A stretch of 9,200 nucleotides of DNA, taken from NCBI GenBank assembly GCA_019348305.1, contig JAHWJQ010000074.1:1-9200 (forward strand), in the 5' to 3' direction. This DNA comes from Actinomycetota bacterium (GTDB lineage: Bacteria > Actinomycetota > Acidimicrobiia > Acidimicrobiales > CADCTF01). The notes below the pieces were generated by a model. It was given only the letters and a program-made list of their open reading frames with translations, made no database searches and had not been told where the DNA came from. A program made the translations under genes and the position numbers. This document shows, one piece after another, positions 1,243-9,200 of the stretch (positions are counted from its first letter, which is position 1; the number at the start of each line of letters is the position of its first letter).

Positions 1243-2067
1243 TCAGAGGGCGTCTCCGAGCCGGCGCGCCTCGCCCCCCACCCGGGACGTCAGCCCGGTT
1301 ACGGCCACGAGCAGCAGGCCGGTGGCCAGGGCCACCTCGGTTGACACCTGCCGGGGTCGTGGGGCGGGGATCGAAGGACGGCCCAGCGGGGCCGCGGGAA
1401 CGGCCGCCTGCTGTGGCGGGGACGTGGGGGCGGGGGGCGGGGCGACGGGCGGTGTCGATGGTGGCGAAGCCGGCACCTTGGCGGCAGGAGTGACCCGTCG
1501 ACGGAGGGCGGGCGCCGCCCTCGACCGGTCGGCCGGAGCCGAGGTCGTCGTCGCCGACGTGACGGGAGCAGCCGAGGACGGCGCCGGTGCCGGGGTGGGC
1601 CGGCGGAACACCTGCGACACCCAGATGAGGCCGTGGTGGTGGACCACGCCCACGCCGATCTCCGTGAGGCGGGGGCTCAGGATCTCGCGTCGGTGGGTGT
1701 CGGATTCCATGAATGCCTCGTGGATGGCGTCCACCGTGTCCCCCTTGCCCACGTTCTCTCCGACGATGTCCCAGTTCTGCACCTGCTCGCGAAGGTTGGG
1801 GTTGTGGTAGAGCCGTCCCTCGCCGGCCATCCGCGCCGCATGGGCGCGGGCAACTTCGGCCAGGTCGGGGGCATGGCTGTAGGGGTGCAACCCGGCGGTG
1901 GCCCGCTCGCGGGCGATCAGGTCGGAGAAGCTGGTCTCGGCTGCCGCCGCGTTGGTGGGGGAGGTCTCGGCCCGGGCTGCCCAGCCGGGCAACAGAGCCG
2001 TGACGACGACAGCGACGACTGCCAGCACCGGGGCCCGCCTCGACACGGCTAGAGCTTCGACAGCCAC
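1243..2067 (-). CDS. Secreted CAP-domain (SCP/YkwD-like) protein with C-terminal membrane anchor
   Basis: The 274-residue protein has an N-terminal signal peptide (about 1-33; a hydrophobic stretch ending in an ARA cleavage site). The CAP domain follows at about 45-155, with GENVG at 103-107 and a [18 protein letters not shown] segment at 124-141, both typical of YkwD-type bacterial CAP proteins. H88, E104 and H125 lie where CAP cavity residues usually sit. A Pro/Ala/Thr-rich linker spans about 157-240, and a second hydrophobic helix at about 244-262 with a short basic tail probably anchors it in the membrane. The start is GTG 2067, preceded by GGAAGGG at 2082-2076 with 8-base spacing. It converges on prfB, leaving 12 bases, and diverges from ftsE. 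Bacterial CAP proteins are mostly uncharacterised, so the substrate is unknown. A cell-envelope role is inferred from the topology and neighbours. Confidence 0.9.
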
Positions 2068-2075
2068 GGGTCATT

Positions 2076-2082
2076 CCCTTCC
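2076..2082 (-). promoter_or_regulatory. Ribosome binding site of the CAP-domain gene
   Basis: On the minus strand GGAAGGG stands 8 bases before GTG 2067. It supports this GTG over the out-of-frame ATG at 2074-2072. Confidence 0.6.
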
Positions 2083-2150
2083 TTGGCCTTGCCTTGCTAG
2101 CCTTGGCCCGCTGCATCTCCGCCTCGGAAAAGCGCCTCCCCCAATATCCC

Positions 2151-2837
2151 ATGATTCGACTCGATCACGTCACCAAGTCCTACAAGGGCACAACGGTGGC
2201 GCTGCGCGACTGCTCTGTCGAGATCGCCAAGGGGGAGTTCGTGTTCCTCGTCGGCCCCTCGGGGTCGGGCAAGTCGACGTTCCTGCGCCTTTTGACCAAG
2301 GAGCAGGAACCGGACGCCGGCAGCATCTGGGTCGCCGGCAAGGAGATCAACACTCTCAGTCAGTGGAAGGTTCCCTACCTGCGCCGCAACATCGGCTGCG
2401 TGTTCCAGGACTTCCGGCTCCTGCCCAACAAGTCGGTCTACGAGAACGTCGCCTTCGCGCTCGAGGTGATCGGCCGGCCCAAGCACGTGATTTCGTCCCA
2501 GGTGCCCCAGATCCTCGATCTGGTCGGATTGTCCAAGAAGATGGAGAACCTCCCCACCGAGCTGTCCGGCGGGGAGCAGCAGCGGGTGAGCATCGCCCGC
2601 GCCTTCGTCAACCGGCCCCTCATCCTTCTGGCCGACGAGCCGACCGGCAACCTCGACCCCAACACCTCGGTGGGCATCATGCGCCTGCTCGACCGCATCA
2701 ACCGCACCGGTACCACGGTGGTGATGGCGACCCACGACCAGGGCATCGTCGACTCGATGCGCCGGCGGGTTATCGAGCTCGACCGCGGCACCGTGGTGCG
2801 CGACCAGGCCCGCGGCGTCTACGGCGTCGGTTCGTGA
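2151..2837 (+). CDS. ftsE: Cell division ATP-binding protein FtsE
   Basis: This 228-residue ABC ATPase is the cytoplasmic half of FtsEX, which converts ATP hydrolysis at the division site into activation of peptidoglycan hydrolases. All nucleotide-binding elements are present: Walker [10 protein letters not shown] at 35-43, Q-loop Q86 (FQDFRLLP), signature LSGGEQQR at 138-145, Walker B LILLADEP ending at 164 with catalytic E163, and the H-loop histidine H195 (ATHD). Length and the [11 protein letters not shown] opening match actinobacterial FtsE, so ATG 2151 is the start rather than the in-frame TTG at 2094. No clear Shine-Dalgarno or TANNNT element precedes the ATG at the usual distance. The stop overlaps the next start (GTGA, 2834-2837). 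LolD/MacB-type ATPases look similar, but ftsX nearby settles the identity. Confidence 0.96.
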
Positions 2838-3157
2838 CGGCGACTCGCCCGGCCGCGACCGAGCGAGACCACTGGCGCCGTCAGCTCTTGCTGACGCTCG
2901 TGGCCGTGGCCGGAGGCATCTTGTCGCTGCGGCTCATGGCGCTGAGCGTCGCCCGTGAAAGCGACGTGTACCAGGTGATCATGTCCGACGGCCGGCGGGT
3001 CCGCAGCGCCAGCTACCTTGTCACCCTGTGGCCGGCCGCAGTCGGTCTGGCTGCCGCCTTCGGCGTTTTCGCGTCGGTCGTGGTGCACACCTACCGGGTC
3101 GCCCGGTTCACCTTCCGCTCAGGCATCGAGCCCAGCCCCACAGGAGAGCTGCCATAG
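2834..3157 (+). CDS. Small two-helix membrane protein between FtsE and FtsX, function unknown
   Basis: This 107-residue gene begins at GTG 2834, overlapping the ftsE stop by four bases (GTGA), and ends at TAG 3155-3157 with ftsX ATG at 3158 and no gap. I do not recognise the family. The N-terminus is hydrophilic, with W14-R15-R16 before a first hydrophobic helix (about 17-38). A loop of about 22 residues follows ([20 protein letters not shown], 40-59), then a second helix (about 61-85), then a basic tail ([13 protein letters not shown]). Positive charges on both ends predict both termini inside and the short loop outside. The reading is supported by amphipathic, membrane-like composition and exact coupling to both neighbours. 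No good Shine-Dalgarno is seen, which fits re-initiation after ftsE. A role as an accessory subunit or regulator of FtsEX is inference. Confidence 0.8.
3142..3148 (+). promoter_or_regulatory. Ribosome binding site of ftsX
   Basis: AGGAGAG lies inside the end of the small membrane protein gene, 9 bases before the ftsX ATG. ftsX can therefore initiate on its own signal as well as by coupling to the TAG at 3155-3157. Confidence 0.6.
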
Positions 3158-4039
3158 ATGGCGATATCCGTCGACTACGTCGTCCGCGAGACGGCCACCA
3201 ACCTGCGCCGTAACCTGTTGATGACCACGGCGGCCATCCTCACCGTGGCCGTCTCGCTGTCCCTGGTGGGGGCGGCGCTGCTGCTCAGGCAGGGCGTGAC
3301 GCGGGCGACGCTGCAGTGGCAGGGCGGCGTCGAGCTGAGCATCTTCTTGAACCCAGACATCGCCACTACCCAGCGCGACGGGATCAAGGCCCAGCTGGAC
3401 GCCATGCCCGAGGTGCGCCGGGTCGCCTATGTCGACCAGGAAGCCGCCTATACGGAGTTCAAGCAGATGTTCGCCAACTCGCCCGACATGGTGGAAAGCG
3501 TGAGCGCCAAGGACCTGCCTCCGTCGTTCCGGGTCGTGCCCCGCCAGCCCGAGCTGACCGAGATCGTGGGGCAGCGCTTCAACAAGCGCGAGGGGGTGAA
3601 GGAGGTCGTCTACGCCGAGGACATGGTCGAGACGCTGATCAATTTCACCGACTTCCTGCAAAACGTCATCTTCGCCGTCGCCGGCGTGTTGCTGTTGTCC
3701 GCCGCCCTGCTCATCCTCAACACCATCCGCATGGCGATCTTCGCCCGGCGCCGGGAGGTGGCGGTGATGAAGCTCGTGGGGGCCACCAACTGGTTCATCC
3801 GGGTGCCGTTCATGTTGGAAGGCATGGTGCAGGGCGTCGTGGGAGCGGCCGCTTCGTTCCTGATGCTGGTGGTGAGCCGTGGGCTCATCGCCAGTGCCCT
3901 CGAGGGCAACCAACTCATCGAGCAGTTCGTCGTCTCGAGCGCCGACGTCATGGGGACGGGGTTCTTCATCCTGGGCATGGGGGCCCTCGTCGGTGGTGCC
4001 GGTTCGGCCCTCGCCGTGAGCCGCTTCCTGGACGTGTGA
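3158..4039 (+). CDS. ftsX: Cell division protein FtsX (permease-like subunit of FtsEX)
   Basis: The 293-residue protein is the membrane half of FtsEX; its extracellular domain relays FtsE ATPase activity to a wall hydrolase. It opens with DYVVRETATNLRRN, typical of Gram-positive FtsX. Helix 1 is at about 20-44, followed by an extracellular domain of about 120 residues (45-165) with the family motif VELSIFLNPD, then helices at about 168-190, 218-243 and 263-287. The conserved cytoplasmic segment RREVAVMKLVGATNWFIR (198-215) contacts FtsE. Length is normal (about 290-300 in actinobacteria). A good Shine-Dalgarno precedes ATG 3158. In several Gram-positive bacteria the partner is a coiled-coil peptidase such as RipC, PcsB or CwlO; none is encoded in this window. 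Confidence 0.96.
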   Translation: MAISVDYVVRETATNLRRNLLMTTAAILTVAVSLSLVGAALLLRQGVTRATLQWQGGVELSIFLNPDIATTQRDGIKAQLDAMPEVRRVAYVDQEAAYTEFKQMFANSPDMVESVSAKDLPPSFRVVPRQPELTEIVGQRFNKREGVKEVVYAEDMVETLINFTDFLQNVIFAVAGVLLLSAALLILNTIRMAIFARRREVAVMKLVGATNWFIRVPFMLEGMVQGVVGAAASFLMLVVSRGLIASALEGNQLIEQFVVSSADVMGTGFFILGMGALVGGAGSALAVSRFLDV

Positions 4040-4099: not shown

Positions 4100-4855
4100 T
4101 CAGCGCATCGTTCGGGTTCGCGAGCTGTCGGCATCGTCGGTGGTTTCCGGCCGGCTGATCAGCGTCTCGTCGCCGTCGCGGCCCGTCCGCCCCGGCTCCT
4201 GTTCCCGCTCGCGCAGGTCGACGGTGCCGGTGTCGTCGCTGGTGTGGGCGTCGCTGGTGGTGGCAGTGGCGGCGGCAGTGGTCCCCACCGTCGGGTCGAG
4301 GGCCCGGGCCATGAGCTTGCCGTGCCACCGCTCGCCGGCGAGGCCGCCGCCGAGCGCCCCCAACAGCATGGCGACCAGGGCCCCGAGGCCAGCGGCAGTG
4401 CCGATGGCGCTCCACTCCGAGGCGGTGGTGGGCACGCCGATGCTGCGCAGGTTGGCGGTCAGGGCGTCGGTGTCGGCCTGGACACCGATGGCTGCGCCGA
4501 TGCCACCGGCCACCAGGATGCCCAGCACGAAGACCAGCAGCCCGTTCACCGCACCGGCACGGCGGGCCATCCGTCCGGCGACGTAGCCACCGAAGAGGTA
4601 GGCGAGGAAGAGGCTGAGCCCGACGGCGATGCCGCTGCCGATGCCGAGCTGGCGCCAGTCGTTGGTGCCGATCTCGGTGGTGTCGAAGCCGATGGCACCG
4701 AGGACAGCGCCCACGATGGCCGCGATCACGGCGAAGGCGCCGTAGGCCACGAGCACGCCGGCCAGGATGCTCACGAACGAGGCACTCCCGAGCCCCGCCT
4801 CCTGTGCCAGCTCCAACCGGTCCCTTCGGTTCTCGACTGCTCTCTGTCTGCGCAT
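4100..4855 (-). CDS. Four-helix integral membrane protein with acidic C-terminal tail, function unknown
   Basis: This 251-residue protein starts at ATG 4855, backed by a near-perfect Shine-Dalgarno (AAGGAGG, 4867-4861). The frame stays open far upstream, but that part is only antisense to the SpoIIE gene. The N-terminus is charged (about 1-22). Four Gly/Ala-rich hydrophobic segments follow at about 25-57, 70-94, 101-125 and 148-172. The GGYVAGRMARRAGAVNGLL stretch (89-107) between helices 2 and 3 resembles conserved loops of small actinobacterial membrane proteins, possibly YrzE/TIGR04086-like; I am not sure of this. The last 70 residues are Thr/Asp/Glu/Arg-rich and look disordered. It diverges from the SpoIIE phosphatase across 135 bases. 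No catalytic motif is seen, and no function is assigned. Confidence 0.85.
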   Translation of the reverse strand: MRRQRAVENRRDRLELAQEAGLGSASFVSILAGVLVAYGAFAVIAAIVGAVLGAIGFDTTEIGTNDWRQLGIGSGIAVGLSLFLAYLFGGYVAGRMARRAGAVNGLLVFVLGILVAGGIGAAIGVQADTDALTANLRSIGVPTTASEWSAIGTAAGLGALVAMLLGALGGGLAGERWHGKLMARALDPTVGTTAAATATTSDAHTSDDTGTVDLREREQEPGRTGRDGDETLISRPETTDDADSSRTRTMR

Positions 4856-4860
4856 GAGTT

Positions 4861-4867
4861 CCTCCTT
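4861..4867 (-). promoter_or_regulatory. Strong ribosome binding site that fixes the membrane protein start
   Basis: On the minus strand AAGGAGG lies 5 bases before ATG 4855. It is the best Shine-Dalgarno I found in the window and decides the start in a frame that remains open for more than 2.5 kb upstream. Confidence 0.75.
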
Positions 4868-4977
4868 GGGCGACTCCTGTGAGTGATGTTCCCGACCACG
4901 GCGCCGCAGTAACCCCGCGCCCCAGTCGTTGGGGCGGCCCACGCCCACGCCTGGCGCGAAGCGTCCTCGTACGCCCC

Positions 4978-4983
4978 TACCAT
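4978..4983 (+). promoter_or_regulatory. Possible -10 element for leaderless transcription of the PAS/GAF/SpoIIE gene
   Basis: TACCAT matches the actinobacterial -10 pattern TANNNT and ends 7 bases before GTG 4991. Transcription could therefore start on the start codon itself. No Shine-Dalgarno precedes this GTG, and no clear -35 is seen. The pattern is short, so chance remains possible. Confidence 0.4.
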
Positions 4984-4990
4984 CTGCGTT

Positions 4991-7615
4991 GTGAACCCGA
5001 AAGGCGGGGTCCTTCCGGTGGATGCCCTCGACGCGCTCGAGCGACTGCCCGTGGCGGTCGGGCTCGTCGACGCCCAGGGCCTGATTTGCTACGTCAACCC
5101 CGCCGCCGAGCGGCTGTACGGCTTCAGGGCCGAAGACGTCGTCGGCCAGAGCGCGCTCGCCTGGGCGGTGGCGCCGAGCGACACCGCCCAGGCCGCCGAC
5201 CTGCTGGCCAAGCTGCAAGAGGGCCAGAGCTGGTCGGGTCGGTTCCCGATCACCCGGCCCGACGGCACCCGCTTCACCGCCTGGCACGCGGTGGTGCCGC
5301 TCCTCGACGAGCAGGGCCAGCCCGCCGGCATTGTCACCGTGTCGGCGGACGACGCGGAGTGGAAACACGAGGAACCCCCGTTGCGGGAGGCCGTGGTCGT
5401 GGCCGAGGAGGCCAACCTTCTCGTGGAAGCCCTGCTGCACTCGGCGCCGGTGGGGATGGCGCTGTTCGACCGGTCGTTGCGCTTCGTGAGGGTCAACGCC
5501 GCCCTGGCTGAGATCAACGGCATCGAGCCGGAGGCCCATGTCGGCCGGGCCGTGGAGGAGCTGCTCACCGGGCTGCCCCAAGAGGTGGTCGACGACATCC
5601 GATCGGTGTTCCGGTCGGCGAGGACGATCGAGCAGCGGCAGGTGACGGGGGAGACCCCCCAGGCGCCGGGCCAGCGTCGCCACTGGATCGTCAGCTATTA
5701 CCCCGTCACCCGGGCGGGCGAGGTGCTGTGGGTCGGAGCCTCCGTGGTGGAGGTGACGAAGTGGCGCCAGGTCGAGGCTGAGCGGGCGCGGCTGCTCGAA
5801 GCCGAACGGGAGGCTCGGCGGGCAGCCGAGCAGGCGGTCGAGCGCCTGGCCAGGCTCCAGGTGCTCACGGGGCGCTTGGCCGAGGTCTCCGATCAGGCCA
5901 TGGCCGCCCACATCATGGTCACCTACGGGAGCCAGAGTGTGGAGGCCGCGGCCGCCGCCCTGTGCATCACCGATGGCGACGACCTCGAGGTCGTCGCCAG
6001 CACCGGAATGGACCCCGAAGCGGTGGGCCGCTTCAGCCGCATGTCCCTGCAGGAGGATCTGCCTTCGGTCCGCGCGCTCCGGCGGGGAGAGTTGGTGCTC
6101 CTCGGGTCGGTCGACGAGCGGGACCGGCGCTATCCCTCGCTGGCCGACGTGAGCACCGGCAACCGCGCCTTCGCTGCGGTGCCGCTGCTCCTCGAGGGCC
6201 ACTCCCTGGGGTCGCTCCTGTTCGCCTGGGCCGATGAGCGGGGGTTCACCGACGCCGACCGCAGCTTCCTCGTCGCCATCGGCCGCCAAGCGGCCCAGGC
6301 GCTGGAACGAGCCCGGCTGTACGACGCCGAGCGGCGAGCACGCGCCTCGGCGGTCGAGGCTTCCGAGCGAATGGCGTTTCTCGCTGAGGCGAGCCGGGTC
6401 CTCTCGTCGTCGCTCGACTACGAGGTGACCCTGGCCGAGCTGGCCCAGCTGGCCGTCCCCGCCATTGCCGACGCTTGTTCGATCCATCTCCTCGAAGACG
6501 ATCACCTCCGCCTGGTGATGGTCGAACACGCCGACGCCGCCAAGCGCCAGGAGTTGACGGCGTTGTCGTCGCGGCCGACGCGGTCCAGGGGGCCCATGCT
6601 CCTGGGACGGGTGGCAGCCCACCGCCAGCCGGTGGTGTTCCCCGAGGTGCCCGACGCGCTCTGGCAGGACATGGCGGAGGACGACGCCCATCTCGCCGCC
6701 CTGCAGGCCCTCGGCATCCACTCGGTGGTGGTGGTGCCGCTGGTGGTACAGGACCGGGTCCTCGGCATCCTCTCGCTGGCAAGCATCTCCTCGGACCGTC
6801 GCTACGACATCGGCGACGTGCCCTTCGTCGAGGACCTCGCCGGCCGCGCCGCGGTGGCCATCGACAACGCCCGGTCCCACAAGGCCCGCTCGGAGATCGC
6901 GCAGACACTGCAGCGAAGCCTCCTGCCCCCCCACCTCCCCCACATCCGCGGTCTGGAGCTGGCACAGCGGTACCACTCGATGGGGGACGTGGAGGTCGGA
7001 GGCGACTTCTTCGACGTGTTCCCGGCCGGTGACGGGCGCTGGGGCGTGGTCATGGGCGACGTGTGCGGCAAGGGCGTAGGGGCGGCTTCGCTCACCGCCC
7101 TGGCCCGCTACACCGTCCGTGCGGCGGCGATCGATGAAGGGCAGCCGGCCAAGGTGCTGCGCCTGCTCAACCGGGCGATCCTCGACGACGGCGATGCCGG
7201 CGAGCGCTTCTGCACCCTCTGCCACGCGGTGGTCGAGCCTGGGGACGCGTCGGTGCGCGTCACCCTGGCGTGCGCCGGCCACCCGCTGCCGTTGCTGGTG
7301 TCGGCCGACGGCGGGGTCCAGCTGGTCGGGCGGCCAGGCACCCTCATCGGCCTGTTCGAAGACATCGTCGTGGGCGAGGTCGACTTGGTGCTCCACCCCG
7401 GCGACGCCTTCGTGCTCTACACCGACGGCTTCATCGAGGTCCGCTCACCCAAGGGCGAGTTCAACCCAGAGCTGCTGTCCCGCGCCCTGGCCGAGGCGGC
7501 GGGCGGATCGGCCGAGGAGATGGCCTCGGCCGTCGACCGGGCGGTGCTCAGTTACCAGGGCGGACAGCCCCGCGACGACATGGCCCTCCTGATCCTCAAG
7601 GTTCCGCCGTCGTGA
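4991..7615 (+). CDS. PAS-PAS-GAF-GAF-SpoIIE (RsbU-like) PP2C serine phosphatase
   Basis: The 874-residue soluble protein probably senses signals through four N-terminal domains and dephosphorylates an anti-sigma-factor antagonist, as RsbU and RsbP do in partner-switching stress responses. PAS1 spans about 12-122 (GLICYVNPAAERLYGF) and PAS2 about 145-258. A charged coiled coil (258-290) precedes GAF1 (about 295-442), a second helical linker, and GAF2 (about 462-628). The linker LQRSLLPPHLP (640-650) leads into the SpoIIE/PP2C domain (about 655-872). Its metal-binding acidic residues are present: D672 (GGDFFDVF), D690 (GDVCGKG), D812 (YTDGFIE) and D862/D863 (RDDMAL), so it should be active. There is no HAMP, histidine kinase or membrane segment. 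The start GTG 4991 lacks a Shine-Dalgarno but has a TANNNT 7 bases upstream. No sigma factor, anti-sigma or STAS antagonist gene is adjacent, so target and ligand are unknown. Confidence 0.93.
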   Translation: MNPKGGVLPVDALDALERLPVAVGLVDAQGLICYVNPAAERLYGFRAEDVVGQSALAWAVAPSDTAQAADLLAKLQEGQSWSGRFPITRPDGTRFTAWHAVVPLLDEQGQPAGIVTVSADDAEWKHEEPPLREAVVVAEEANLLVEALLHSAPVGMALFDRSLRFVRVNAALAEINGIEPEAHVGRAVEELLTGLPQEVVDDIRSVFRSARTIEQRQVTGETPQAPGQRRHWIVSYYPVTRAGEVLWVGASVVEVTKWRQVEAERARLLEAEREARRAAEQAVERLARLQVLTGRLAEVSDQAMAAHIMVTYGSQSVEAAAAALCITDGDDLEVVASTGMDPEAVGRFSRMSLQEDLPSVRALRRGELVLLGSVDERDRRYPSLADVSTGNRAFAAVPLLLEGHSLGSLLFAWADERGFTDADRSFLVAIGRQAAQALERARLYDAERRARASAVEASERMAFLAEASRVLSSSLDYEVTLAELAQLAVPAIADACSIHLLEDDHLRLVMVEHADAAKRQELTALSSRPTRSRGPMLLGRVAAHRQPVVFPEVPDALWQDMAEDDAHLAALQALGIHSVVVVPLVVQDRVLGILSLASISSDRRYDIGDVPFVEDLAGRAAVAIDNARSHKARSEIAQTLQRSLLPPHLPHIRGLELAQRYHSMGDVEVGGDFFDVFPAGDGRWGVVMGDVCGKGVGAASLTALARYTVRAAAIDEGQPAKVLRLLNRAILDDGDAGERFCTLCHAVVEPGDASVRVTLACAGHPLPLLVSADGGVQLVGRPGTLIGLFEDIVVGEVDLVLHPGDAFVLYTDGFIEVRSPKGEFNPELLSRALAEAAGGSAEEMASAVDRAVLSYQGGQPRDDMALLILKVPPS

Positions 7616-8099: not shown

Positions 8100-8127
8100 A
8101 GAAGCGCCGGCGGTAGGTGAAGCTGGG

Positions 8128-8476
8128 TGGAGGTGGAGGGAATCGAACCCTCGTCCCTCGGGTTCTCGACGGGTCTTCTCCGAGCGCAGCCGGTGGAAGG
8201 TCTCGGGCCTCGCCCCTTCACCGGCAACGGTGCGAGGCCCCAGTCAACTGAGGTGTTCCCGACGAGCCCGTTGACGAGGCTTGTCAGGTGAGCCCTGCTG
8301 AATGATGCCCGAACCCGGCCCGCAGGGCGGGGGCCGGAAGGACATCGCTGCTAGTTAGGCAGCGAGCGTCAACGGTGTGTTGGCGTTTGTTTTTGTGCCG
8401 GCTCTTTTACGTGGACTCCGACAACCACGGCTCGCTTCTCCCGTCTCGACGACCGAGGTCGAAACCAGGCACCCCC
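8128..8476 (-). ncRNA. ssrA: Transfer-messenger RNA (tmRNA, SsrA)
   Basis: tmRNA frees stalled ribosomes by acting first as tRNA-Ala and then as mRNA for a degradation tag. The minus-strand 5' end at 8476 reads GGGGGTGCCTGGTTTCGAC. Its GGGGGTG pairs with CACCTCC (8135-8129) to form a 7-bp acceptor stem whose third pair is G·U, the alanine identity element. The T arm is GAGGG-TTCGATT-CCCTC (8152-8136), and 8128 is the discriminator A. The encoded 3' sequence is ACCCA, not ACCA, so CCA is probably added after transcription. Without CCA the RNA is about 349 nt, normal for one-piece bacterial tmRNA. smpB, its obligate partner, lies directly upstream on the same strand. Pseudoknots were not worked out in detail. 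Confidence 0.95.
8355..8402 (-). other. tmRNA tag reading frame (proteolysis tag)
   Basis: Within ssrA a short frame reads AGTKTNANTPLTLAA and ends at TAA (8357-8355). The resume codon is probably GCC (8402-8400); starting one codon later at GGC gives a 14-residue tag. An A stands four bases before either candidate, where the conserved upstream adenosine is expected. The Leu-Ala-Ala ending is the usual ClpXP/protease signal. The residue before it is Thr where most bacterial tags have Ala (ALAA). Confidence 0.75.
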
Positions 8477-8530: not shown

Positions 8531-9034
8531 TCATTCCCGCCGGCGGCCGGCGTGGGCGCGGTCGGCCTCACGCTCGGCATCGCGTTTGGCGATGGCGGCC
8601 CGCTTGTCGTAGTTCTTGCGGGGGCGGGCCAGGCCCAGCTCGACCTTGGCCCGGCCCTCCTTGAAGTAGATCGCCAGGGGCACCAGGGCCAGCCCTTCCT
8701 GCTGCGTGCGCTCGGCCAGCTCGTCGATCTCGCGACGGTGCGCGAGCAGCTTGCGCGATCTGTCGGGGTCGTGGCCGTCGCGCCCCGTGGCGAAGGCGTA
8801 GGGGGAGATGTGGACGTTGTGGAGCCACAGCTGGCTGCCCTCCACCCGGGCGTAGGAGTCACGCAGCTGGACCTTGGCGTCGCGCAGCGACTTGACCTCG
8901 CTGCCCAGGAGCTGGAGGCCGCATTCGTAGGTCTCGAGGATGTCGTAGTCGTGGCGGGCCTTGCGGTTCTGGGCCACGGGCTTGGAGCCCCGTGCTCCCC
9001 GCTCTGACGGGCCGCTCGGGCCCTTGGTCGCCAT
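8531..9034 (-). CDS. smpB: SsrA-binding protein SmpB
   Basis: The 167-residue protein binds the tRNA-like part of tmRNA and delivers it to stalled ribosomes, its C-terminal tail probing the empty mRNA channel. Family signatures are clear: NRKARHDYDILETYECGLQL (23-42), the GSEVKSLR segment, DSYARV, HNVHISPYA, and the RNA-binding block KEGRAKVELGLARPRKNYDK (125-144). A basic/acidic C-terminal tail (145-167) follows. The first 20 residues are a hydrophilic actinobacterial-style extension. Start ATG 9034 has no Shine-Dalgarno, but a TANNNT hexamer ends 7 bases upstream, so the mRNA may be leaderless. ssrA follows 54 bases downstream on the same strand, making a two-gene trans-translation unit. 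Confidence 0.97.
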   Translation of the reverse strand: MATKGPSGPSERGARGSKPVAQNRKARHDYDILETYECGLQLLGSEVKSLRDAKVQLRDSYARVEGSQLWLHNVHISPYAFATGRDGHDPDRSRKLLAHRREIDELAERTQQEGLALVPLAIYFKEGRAKVELGLARPRKNYDKRAAIAKRDAEREADRAHAGRRRE

Positions 9035-9040
9035 GGCCGT

Positions 9041-9047
9041 TACCGTA
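9041..9047. promoter_or_regulatory. Candidate shared bidirectional -10 element between smpB and the JAMM gene
   Basis: TACCGTA contains TACCGT on the plus strand (9041-9046) and TACGGT on the minus strand (9047-9042), both TANNNT. Exactly 7 bases separate each hexamer from its start codon: ATG 9054 rightward and ATG 9034 leftward. Neither gene has a Shine-Dalgarno, and the whole divergent gap is 19 bases, so both mRNAs would be leaderless. No consensus -35 is seen on either side. Inferred from geometry alone. Confidence 0.5.
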
Positions 9048-9053
9048 CCGGCG

Positions 9054-9200
9054 ATGCTGCGCCTCACCCCCACCGTCTACGAACAGATGGTGGGCCACGG
9101 CTACGACGCCCTGCCGCTCGAGGCGTGCGGGCTCTTCGCCGGTCCGCCGGGCAGCAATGATGCCTTGGCCTGCTATCCCACCGGGAACCTGGCCGCGTCG
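9054..9200 (+). CDS. JAMM/MPN (Mov34, peptidase M67) family metalloprotease, N-terminal part
   Basis: The first 49 residues are present and the gene continues beyond the window. The opening MLRLTPTVYEQMVGHGYDALPLE, followed by ACGLFAG, matches the start of bacterial Mec/M67 JAMM proteins. E23 is in the position of the JAMM catalytic glutamate, and CYPTGNLAAS matches the usual strand with its Asn. The zinc-binding HxH...SxxD part would lie downstream and cannot be checked. In actinobacteria such enzymes (for example Mec) cleave ubiquitin-like sulfur carriers (CysO/ThiS/MoaD type) in cysteine biosynthesis, often beside cysO and cysM; whether those follow here is unknown. The start ATG 9054 is only 19 bases from that of smpB. 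Confidence 0.8.
   Translation, partial: MLRLTPTVYEQMVGHGYDALPLEACGLFAGPPGSNDALACYPTGNLAAS

What the first reader, a model, noticed from the sequence alone, without database searches (positions are those of the whole stretch)
2834..3157. A coupled two-helix membrane protein sits between ftsE and ftsX
ftsE and ftsX are normally adjacent or overlapping. Here a 107-residue gene overlaps the ftsE stop by four bases (GTGA) and ends immediately before the ftsX ATG, so all three should be made together in a fixed ratio. Its predicted topology is both ends inside with a short outside loop. It could be a third subunit, an assembly factor or a regulator of FtsEX. I do not recognise the family, and it is easy to miss because a longer overlapping frame masks it. 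The function is inference.
Basis: partly seen in the sequence, partly recalled or inferred. Interest (0 to 1): 0.75.

Follow-up and report, generated by a model that had tools for sequence, protein, structure and literature searches.

The report
Mini-FtsX gene between ftsE and ftsX
In one group of actinobacteria a small two-helix membrane protein is encoded between the two genes of a cell-division machine, and it looks like a cut-down copy of part of that machine's own membrane subunit.

Summary
A 107-codon gene (2834-3157, GTG start) overlaps the ftsE stop by four bases and ends directly before the ftsX ATG. It is a real gene: against its nearest relative 25 of 36 differences are at third codon positions, dN/dS 0.12. 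It belongs to a family of 49 database proteins without a Pfam or NCBIfam assignment. In all ten loci read (window plus nine genomes) it lies directly before ftsX. It is often absent: of the 30 nearest ftsX loci 9 have it, 1 has a 28-codon remnant, 20 have ftsE and ftsX adjacent. A tree fits one old gain with repeated losses.

New here: the family profile matches FtsX itself, helix 1 on TM1 and helix 2 on TM2 plus stalk, skipping the extracellular domain (hhalign p 3.1e-5 on the excised hairpin; controls 0.19 and 0.27). The TM2 half alone does not stand out from background. I read it as a degenerate half-FtsX that packs into the FtsEX membrane core as a dispensable modulator. Descent is suggested, function inferred.

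The parts
2151..2837 (+). ftsE, ATPase subunit
   Evidence: TIGR02673 FtsE 292.5 bits, cut-off 264.85
2834..3157 (+). the small gene ('mini-FtsX'), 107 codons, GTG start, TAG stop
   Evidence: ORF and overlaps; homologues; dN/dS 0.12
2834..2837 (+). GTGA start/stop overlap with ftsE
   Evidence: sequence; NTGA in 7 of 8 other carriers readable there
2876..2887 (+). RRQL motif (residues 15-18) at the start of helix 1; aligned with R17-R18-N19 of FtsX
   Evidence: R16 and Q17 in 51 of 51, R15 in 50 of 51, L18 in 49 of 51 aligned members; hhalign
2888..2953 (+). helix 1, about residues 19-40; resembles FtsX TM1
   Evidence: AF2 helix 7-43; hits on FtsX TM1
2954..3022 (+). variable loop (residues 41-63), standing where FtsX carries its extracellular domain
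   Evidence: length 9 to 34 residues in 51 members
3023..3085 (+). helix 2 (residues 64-84); resembles FtsX TM2
   Evidence: AF2 helix 61-95; hits on FtsX TM2
3086..3118 (+). H..RVA.F stalk motif (residues 85-95); aligned with N188-R198 of FtsX, ends before the stretch of the FtsX coupling helix
   Evidence: H85 51, R88 50, V89 48, A90 49, F92 48 of 52; alignment
3142..3147 (+). AGGAGA, possible ribosome-binding site for ftsX inside the small gene
   Evidence: read from the sequence; not tested
3158..4039 (+). ftsX, membrane subunit
   Evidence: Pfam FtsX_ECD (residues 58-150) and FtsX above cut-off

Best explanation
The gene encodes a 'mini-FtsX': a degenerate partial copy of FtsX that keeps the TM1-TM2 hairpin and the cytosolic end of TM2 and has lost the extracellular domain, the coupling helix, TM3 and TM4. 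It is translated between FtsE and FtsX and most likely packs, both ends inside, against the FtsX transmembrane core, as a dispensable modulator or assembly aid of FtsEX that works through its two conserved cytosol-side motifs and not through its variable outside loop. SHOWN: real gene, conserved family, fixed place before ftsX, purifying selection, best conservation at the two cytosol-side helix ends. SUGGESTED: descent from FtsX TM1-TM2. INFERRED: binding to FtsX or FtsE, and the tuning or assembly role.
For: Place before ftsX in 10 of 10 loci. Purifying selection, dN/dS 0.12. Best conserved segments are pre-TM1 and stalk (1.01 and 1.09 bits entropy; loop 1.63; tails 2.21 and 2.06). Family HMM gives window FtsX 14.0 bits, above all 661 background ORFs (best 12.9). 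N-half falls on FtsX TM1 in 66 of 89, C-half on TM2 in 55 of 89; column shuffles reach the observed medians in 0 of 60 each. TM1-TM2 pair of window FtsX 26.7 bits, 0 of 860 background helix pairs as high; TM2-TM3 and TM3-TM4 medians 8.5 and 3.7. hhalign against FtsX TM1+TM2 72.9%, p 3.1e-5, 86 columns in order; TM3-TM4 0.19, reversed 0.27. Genome searches outside the small gene: FtsX TM1 in 4 of 11 weak hits; FtsX TM2 in 3 and TM1 in 1 of 20 weak hits tested, 25 being listed. FtsX TM1 and TM2 form the central core in E. coli FtsEX (PMC11491553, passages).
Against: Uncut FtsX gives only p 0.0026 or 0.0092, TM1 alone. The C-half alone is ordinary: 69 of 661 background ORFs score at least as high as window FtsX, and shuffles reach its maximum in 8 and its window score in 4 of 60; it falls on TM1 in 26 of 89. 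Single-sequence hhalign: 1 of 860 background pairs as good as window FtsX, 7 as good as the FtsX median. The excision was chosen after the half-hits were seen, and FtsX orthologues are not independent. Absent from most relatives. No Pfam FtsX match. No interaction data.
Confidence: 0.5

Rival explanations
1. An FtsEX-associated two-helix protein of independent origin (regulator or chaperone, like SweCD or SteAB in role). Its likeness to FtsX TM1-TM2 is convergence of short membrane helices with arginines at the inner face.
For: Likeness rests on about 30 residues around each helix; C-half alone is ordinary; uncut FtsX only p 0.0026; other lineages recruit unrelated membrane co-factors (passages of PMC6705773 and PMC6705760).
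Against: Both halves point to the colinear FtsX helices; excised-hairpin and shuffle controls.
Confidence: 0.25
2. A membrane protein with an unrelated envelope role that merely rides in the ftsEX operon.
For: Frequent loss and faster evolution than ftsE and ftsX.
Against: Never seen away from ftsX among clear matches: the same 9 genomes in 397 and 298 overlapping relatives searched; coupling on both sides in most carriers.
Confidence: 0.12
3. The coding sequence matters mainly as a translational coupling spacer setting the FtsE:FtsX ratio; the protein itself is nearly idle and decaying.
For: L013 keeps a 28-codon ORF with the NTGA overlap and 3 bases to ftsX after losing the helices; repeated losses in the tree; distant pairs show dN/dS 0.25-0.74.
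Against: dN/dS 0.12 between window and L009; RRQ and H..RVA.F kept in members about 30% identical to the window; other lineages link ftsE and ftsX without any insert.
Confidence: 0.1

Closest known systems
FtsX, membrane subunit of the type VII ABC complex FtsEX (NCBIfam NF038346, NF038347; Pfam PF18075 and PF02687)
   Same: Next-door gene; TM1-like helix after RR[QN], TM2-like helix followed by R.A.F; N-in topology expected
   Different: 107 residues against 293; two helices; no extracellular domain, coupling helix, TM3 or TM4; no Pfam FtsX match
SweC/SweD of Bacillus subtilis, co-factors of FtsEX-CwlO (PMC6705773; listing and passages seen)
   Same: Small membrane proteins (13 and 16 kDa) needed for an FtsEX hydrolase pathway: a parallel in role if the small protein serves FtsEX
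   Different: One N-terminal membrane segment each plus coiled-coil/HTH or LysM-like domain; encoded together in an operon of their own
SteA/SteB of Corynebacterineae, RipC-FtsEX cell separation pathway (PMC6705760; listing and passages seen)
   Same: Actinobacterial membrane proteins of the FtsEX pathway
   Different: Single-pass proteins with soluble domains in their own apparent operon; that study detected no direct contact with FtsEX

Membership tests
FtsX | Extracellular domain FtsX_ECD (PF18075) | tested here: not met
   No Pfam family at E <= 0.1 for the small protein; not among the 25 of 70 families shown for 52 members at E <= 1
FtsX | C-terminal permease domain PF02687 with coupling helix, TM3 and TM4 | tested here: not met
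   107 residues, two helices; no PF02687 match
FtsX | Sequence relation of the TM1-TM2 hairpin | tested here: inconclusive
   p 3.1e-5 on the excised hairpin with good controls, 0.0026 on uncut FtsX; window pair 0 of 860 by HMM, 1 of 860 by hhalign; C-half alone ordinary
FtsX | Gene linked to ftsE | tested here: met
SweC/SweD | Single N-terminal membrane segment with coiled-coil/HTH or LysM-like domain | tested here: not met
   Two helices, no soluble domain in the model
SteA/SteB | Single-pass protein with a soluble cytosolic (SteA) or external (SteB) domain | tested here: not met
   Two helices, no soluble domain; PF12555 SteA-like_C only in 2 of 52 members, best E 0.24
FtsEX accessory subunit (functional class) | Physical contact with FtsE or FtsX | not testable with these tools
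   The folding tool takes one chain

The most novel reading that the evidence does not exclude
A true 'half-FtsX' that takes the place of, or wedges beside, one FtsX TM1-TM2 hairpin in the dimer core, giving asymmetric FtsEX complexes with one extracellular arm and one coupling helix missing or displaced: a brake or gear on cell-wall hydrolysis evolved by gutting a copy of the transmitter itself.
Probability: 0.15. Interest if true: 0.85.

Novelty: new variant of a known kind. Interest (0 to 1): 0.62.

Why it matters
FtsEX tells cell-wall hydrolases when to cut during division and is treated as a two-gene system plus outside partners. A third gene inside the operon, apparently carved from ftsX, would be a kind of subunit that did not come up in my paper searches (titles, abstract starts and some passages seen). 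The gain, repeated loss and a remnant in one bacterial group make a natural experiment, and the protein isolates the two helices that form the FtsX core, so it could show what that core does without its extracellular arm.

Tried and rejected
Rejected: a spurious ORF in GC-rich DNA. Rejected: an insertion peculiar to one assembly (nine other genomes and 49 database proteins). Relocated copies in genomes that lack it: none clear; the best match away from ftsX is one place in carrier G187 with E 1.0e-4, which is not FtsX and was not followed further. Not adopted: weak Pfam matches such as Trp_oprn_chp (10 of 52 members, best E 0.023), SecE (4, 0.018) and Phage_holin_3_6 (2, 0.00058), without consistency, as expected of hydrophobic helices (25 of 70 families shown). 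PDB profile search: one photosystem II helix at E 0.35. Foldseek on the model (pLDDT 70.8, pTM 0.37): three matches, none better than E 7.6. Gap values of -897, -897 and -334 for L044, L058 and L074 were my script missing the ftsE stop; read directly, ftsE and ftsX are adjacent there.

Full report
WHAT IS THERE. The window carries prfB, a CAP-domain gene on the minus strand, ftsE (2151-2837), the reported gene (2834-3157), ftsX (3158-4039), a putative membrane ORF on the minus strand, a PAS/GAF/SpoIIE gene, a DUF983 gene, a tmRNA and smpB. The 107-codon gene starts with GTG inside the ftsE stop (GTGA) and its TAG abuts the ftsX ATG. An AGGAGA lies at 3142-3147, inside the small gene; as a ribosome-binding site for ftsX it is untested. 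The 'masking' frame 1898-3157 is the same frame with an earlier start.

IT IS A GENE. The first protein search gave 11 homologues at E <= 0.001, 55-91% identical. An alignment widened by genome loci gave 47 at E <= 0.01 (only the 7997 candidates sharing most words were scored), 49 in union with the first; none has a precomputed Pfam domain, 39 of the 47 have no name, and the five whose name cites an organism cite Acidimicrobiales (four) or Acidimicrobiaceae (one). A scan of 11.3 million genome contigs gave one locus, L001, an Actinomycetota metagenome genome. Between the window and that genome (L009) there are 36 differences, 25 at third codon positions: dN/dS 0.12, against 0.005 for ftsE and 0.028 for ftsX. 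The other forward frames give 1.9 and 3.6, the antisense frames 1.8, 4.2 and 0.30. Five distant pairs of small genes give 0.25-0.74, so constraint is loose over long times.

WHERE IT OCCURS. FtsX was found in 191 of 198 relatives of that genome (kinship is not told). Of the 30 loci fetched automatically, 9 have the small gene (L009, L010, L011, L012, L014, L015, L016, L025, and G162 read as L018/L039), 1 (L013) has a 28-codon ORF with the NTGA overlap and a similar C-terminal end but no helices, and 20 have ftsE and ftsX adjacent, with spacers of -7 to 39 bases. I fetched 59 further genomes from the same listing: none has the gene; spacers are at most 98 bases, except 251 bases of repetitive, unrelated sequence in L097. 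So 89 of the 191 were read. In the 8 carriers whose ftsE end could be read, 7 start at NTGA (ATGA, GTGA or TTGA); L011 starts 7 bases after the stop. The 3' end runs from 3 bases before the ftsX start to a 10-base overlap. Profile searches of 397 relatives of G001 and 298 of G104 (overlapping sets) gave the same 9 genomes as clear matches. A tree of FtsE+FtsX (58 rows) needs 5 changes for the gene (shuffled mean 9.4; 1 of 500 shuffles as low). One early gain with four losses fits; the branch that joins L014 to the rest is not well supported (86/66). L013 is the sister of carrier L010.

ANATOMY. Among 52 aligned members (51 with the N-terminal columns) R16 and Q17 are invariant, and R15 (50 of 51), L18 (49 of 51), H85 (51 of 52), R88 (50), V89 (48), A90 (49) and F92 (48) nearly so. 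Mean entropy is 1.01 and 1.09 bits in the two cytosol-side segments, 1.63 in helix 1, 1.53 in helix 2, 1.63 in the loop, and 2.21 and 2.06 in the tails. The loop runs from 9 to 34 residues. Mean net charge is +1.5 (N side), +0.5 (loop) and +2.6 (C side), but only 31 of 51 members have both ends above the loop, so the charge rule supports both-ends-inside only weakly. AlphaFold2 gives helices 7-43 and 61-95 (pLDDT 70.8, pTM 0.37). This anatomy points to work in the membrane and at its inner face, not outside where FtsX holds its hydrolase (inference).

LIKENESS TO FTSX. The lead came: of 11 weak hits outside the small gene, 4 (G002, G135, G124, G311) fall on FtsX TM1. Tests followed. (1) The family HMM scores window FtsX 14.0 bits over residues 12-52, above all 661 background ORFs (best 12.9); the FtsX median is 9.8, with 3 of 661 above. 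Half by half it is weaker: N-half, 2 of 661 at or above window FtsX; C-half, 69 of 661. (2) The N-half falls on TM1 in 66 of 89 FtsX, the C-half on TM2 in 55 (TM1 in 26). Shuffling hydrophobic columns reaches the observed median in 0 of 60 for either half; it reaches the N-half maximum in 1 and window score in 0, the C-half maximum in 8 and window score in 4 of 60. (3) With loops trimmed alike, the TM1-TM2 pair of window FtsX scores 26.7 bits, 0 of 860 background pairs as high (next 26.3, a low-complexity ORF); the FtsX median is 22.2, 2 of 860 as high; TM2-TM3 and TM3-TM4 medians are 8.5 and 3.7. Several top background ORFs look like misread frames to me, which makes the background harsh rather than lenient. 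(4) hhalign with the FtsX TM1+TM2 alignment: 72.9%, p 3.1e-5, 86 columns; TM1 alone 0.00048, TM2 alone 0.0062, TM3-TM4 0.19, reversed 0.27, uncut FtsX 0.0026, uncut with 13 sequences 0.0092. (5) Single-sequence hhalign: window pair E 0.003, 1 of 860 background pairs as good; median 0.011, 7 as good; the best FtsX pairs (0.00025) beat the best background pair (0.0013). (6) A second genome search listed 25 weak hits outside the small gene; of the 20 tested, 3 (G286, G209, G249) fall on FtsX TM2, about residues 155-203, and 1 (G002) on TM1. The FtsX stretch skipped is the Pfam FtsX_ECD domain (58-150). Conserved positions agree: R16-Q17 with FtsX R18-N19 (88 of 89 each), and R88, A90, F92 with FtsX R191 (71 of 89), A193 (89) and F195 (86). 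I put descent from FtsX at about 0.6. It is not shown: the excision was chosen after seeing half-hits, the halves are short, and FtsX orthologues are not independent.

HOW IT MAY WORK. In E. coli FtsEX, TM1 and TM2 of both FtsX form a central four-helix core (PMC11491553, passages), and dimer contacts are mainly TM1 and TM3 with TM2 (PMC11139282, passages). In the mycobacterial complex the text gives TM2 and TM3 for dimerization, an extracellular domain at residues 54-156 and an elbow helix at 1-17 (PMC10694151, passages). A protein keeping only TM1-TM2 could pack on that core; without the coupling helix FtsE would not drive it in the usual way, and without the extracellular domain it would not hold a hydrolase. 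Hence a tuning or assembly role that evolution can drop is my best reading; this step is inference.

AGAINST WHAT IS KNOWN. No paper on a gene between ftsE and ftsX or on an FtsX-derived small protein came up in four searches (listings and abstract starts; the library lacks most subscription papers). SweC/SweD and SteA/SteB are parallels in role with other layouts. By the family's defining domains the protein is not an FtsX, though it may descend from one.

Noticed in passing
L013 1411-1497: A 28-codon ORF between ftsE and ftsX keeps the ATGA overlap and a C-terminal end like that of sister carrier L010 but lacks both helices: probably a gene caught in loss.
   Followed up: partly
window 8126-8476 (-) and 8531-9073 (-): tmRNA gene (tag ANTPLTLAA) next to smpB on the same strand, beyond ftsX.
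   Followed up: no
window 1243-2067 (-): CAP/YkwD-like secreted-protein gene between prfB and ftsE, on the opposite strand; weak match to divisome-associated lipoprotein DalA (20.9 bits, cut-off 200).
   Followed up: no
window 4991-7615: 874-residue PAS/GAF/SpoIIE-type phosphatase gene; a 1098-codon minus-strand ORF (4100-7396) lies across it and is probably spurious over most of its length.
   Followed up: no
L097, between ftsE and ftsX: 251-base spacer of repetitive sequence, unrelated to the small gene.
   Followed up: partly
L118 and L228 (G187:C237): One weak match to the family away from ftsX (E 8.1e-4, 1.0e-4), inside a frame of 490 residues; not FtsX.
   Followed up: partly
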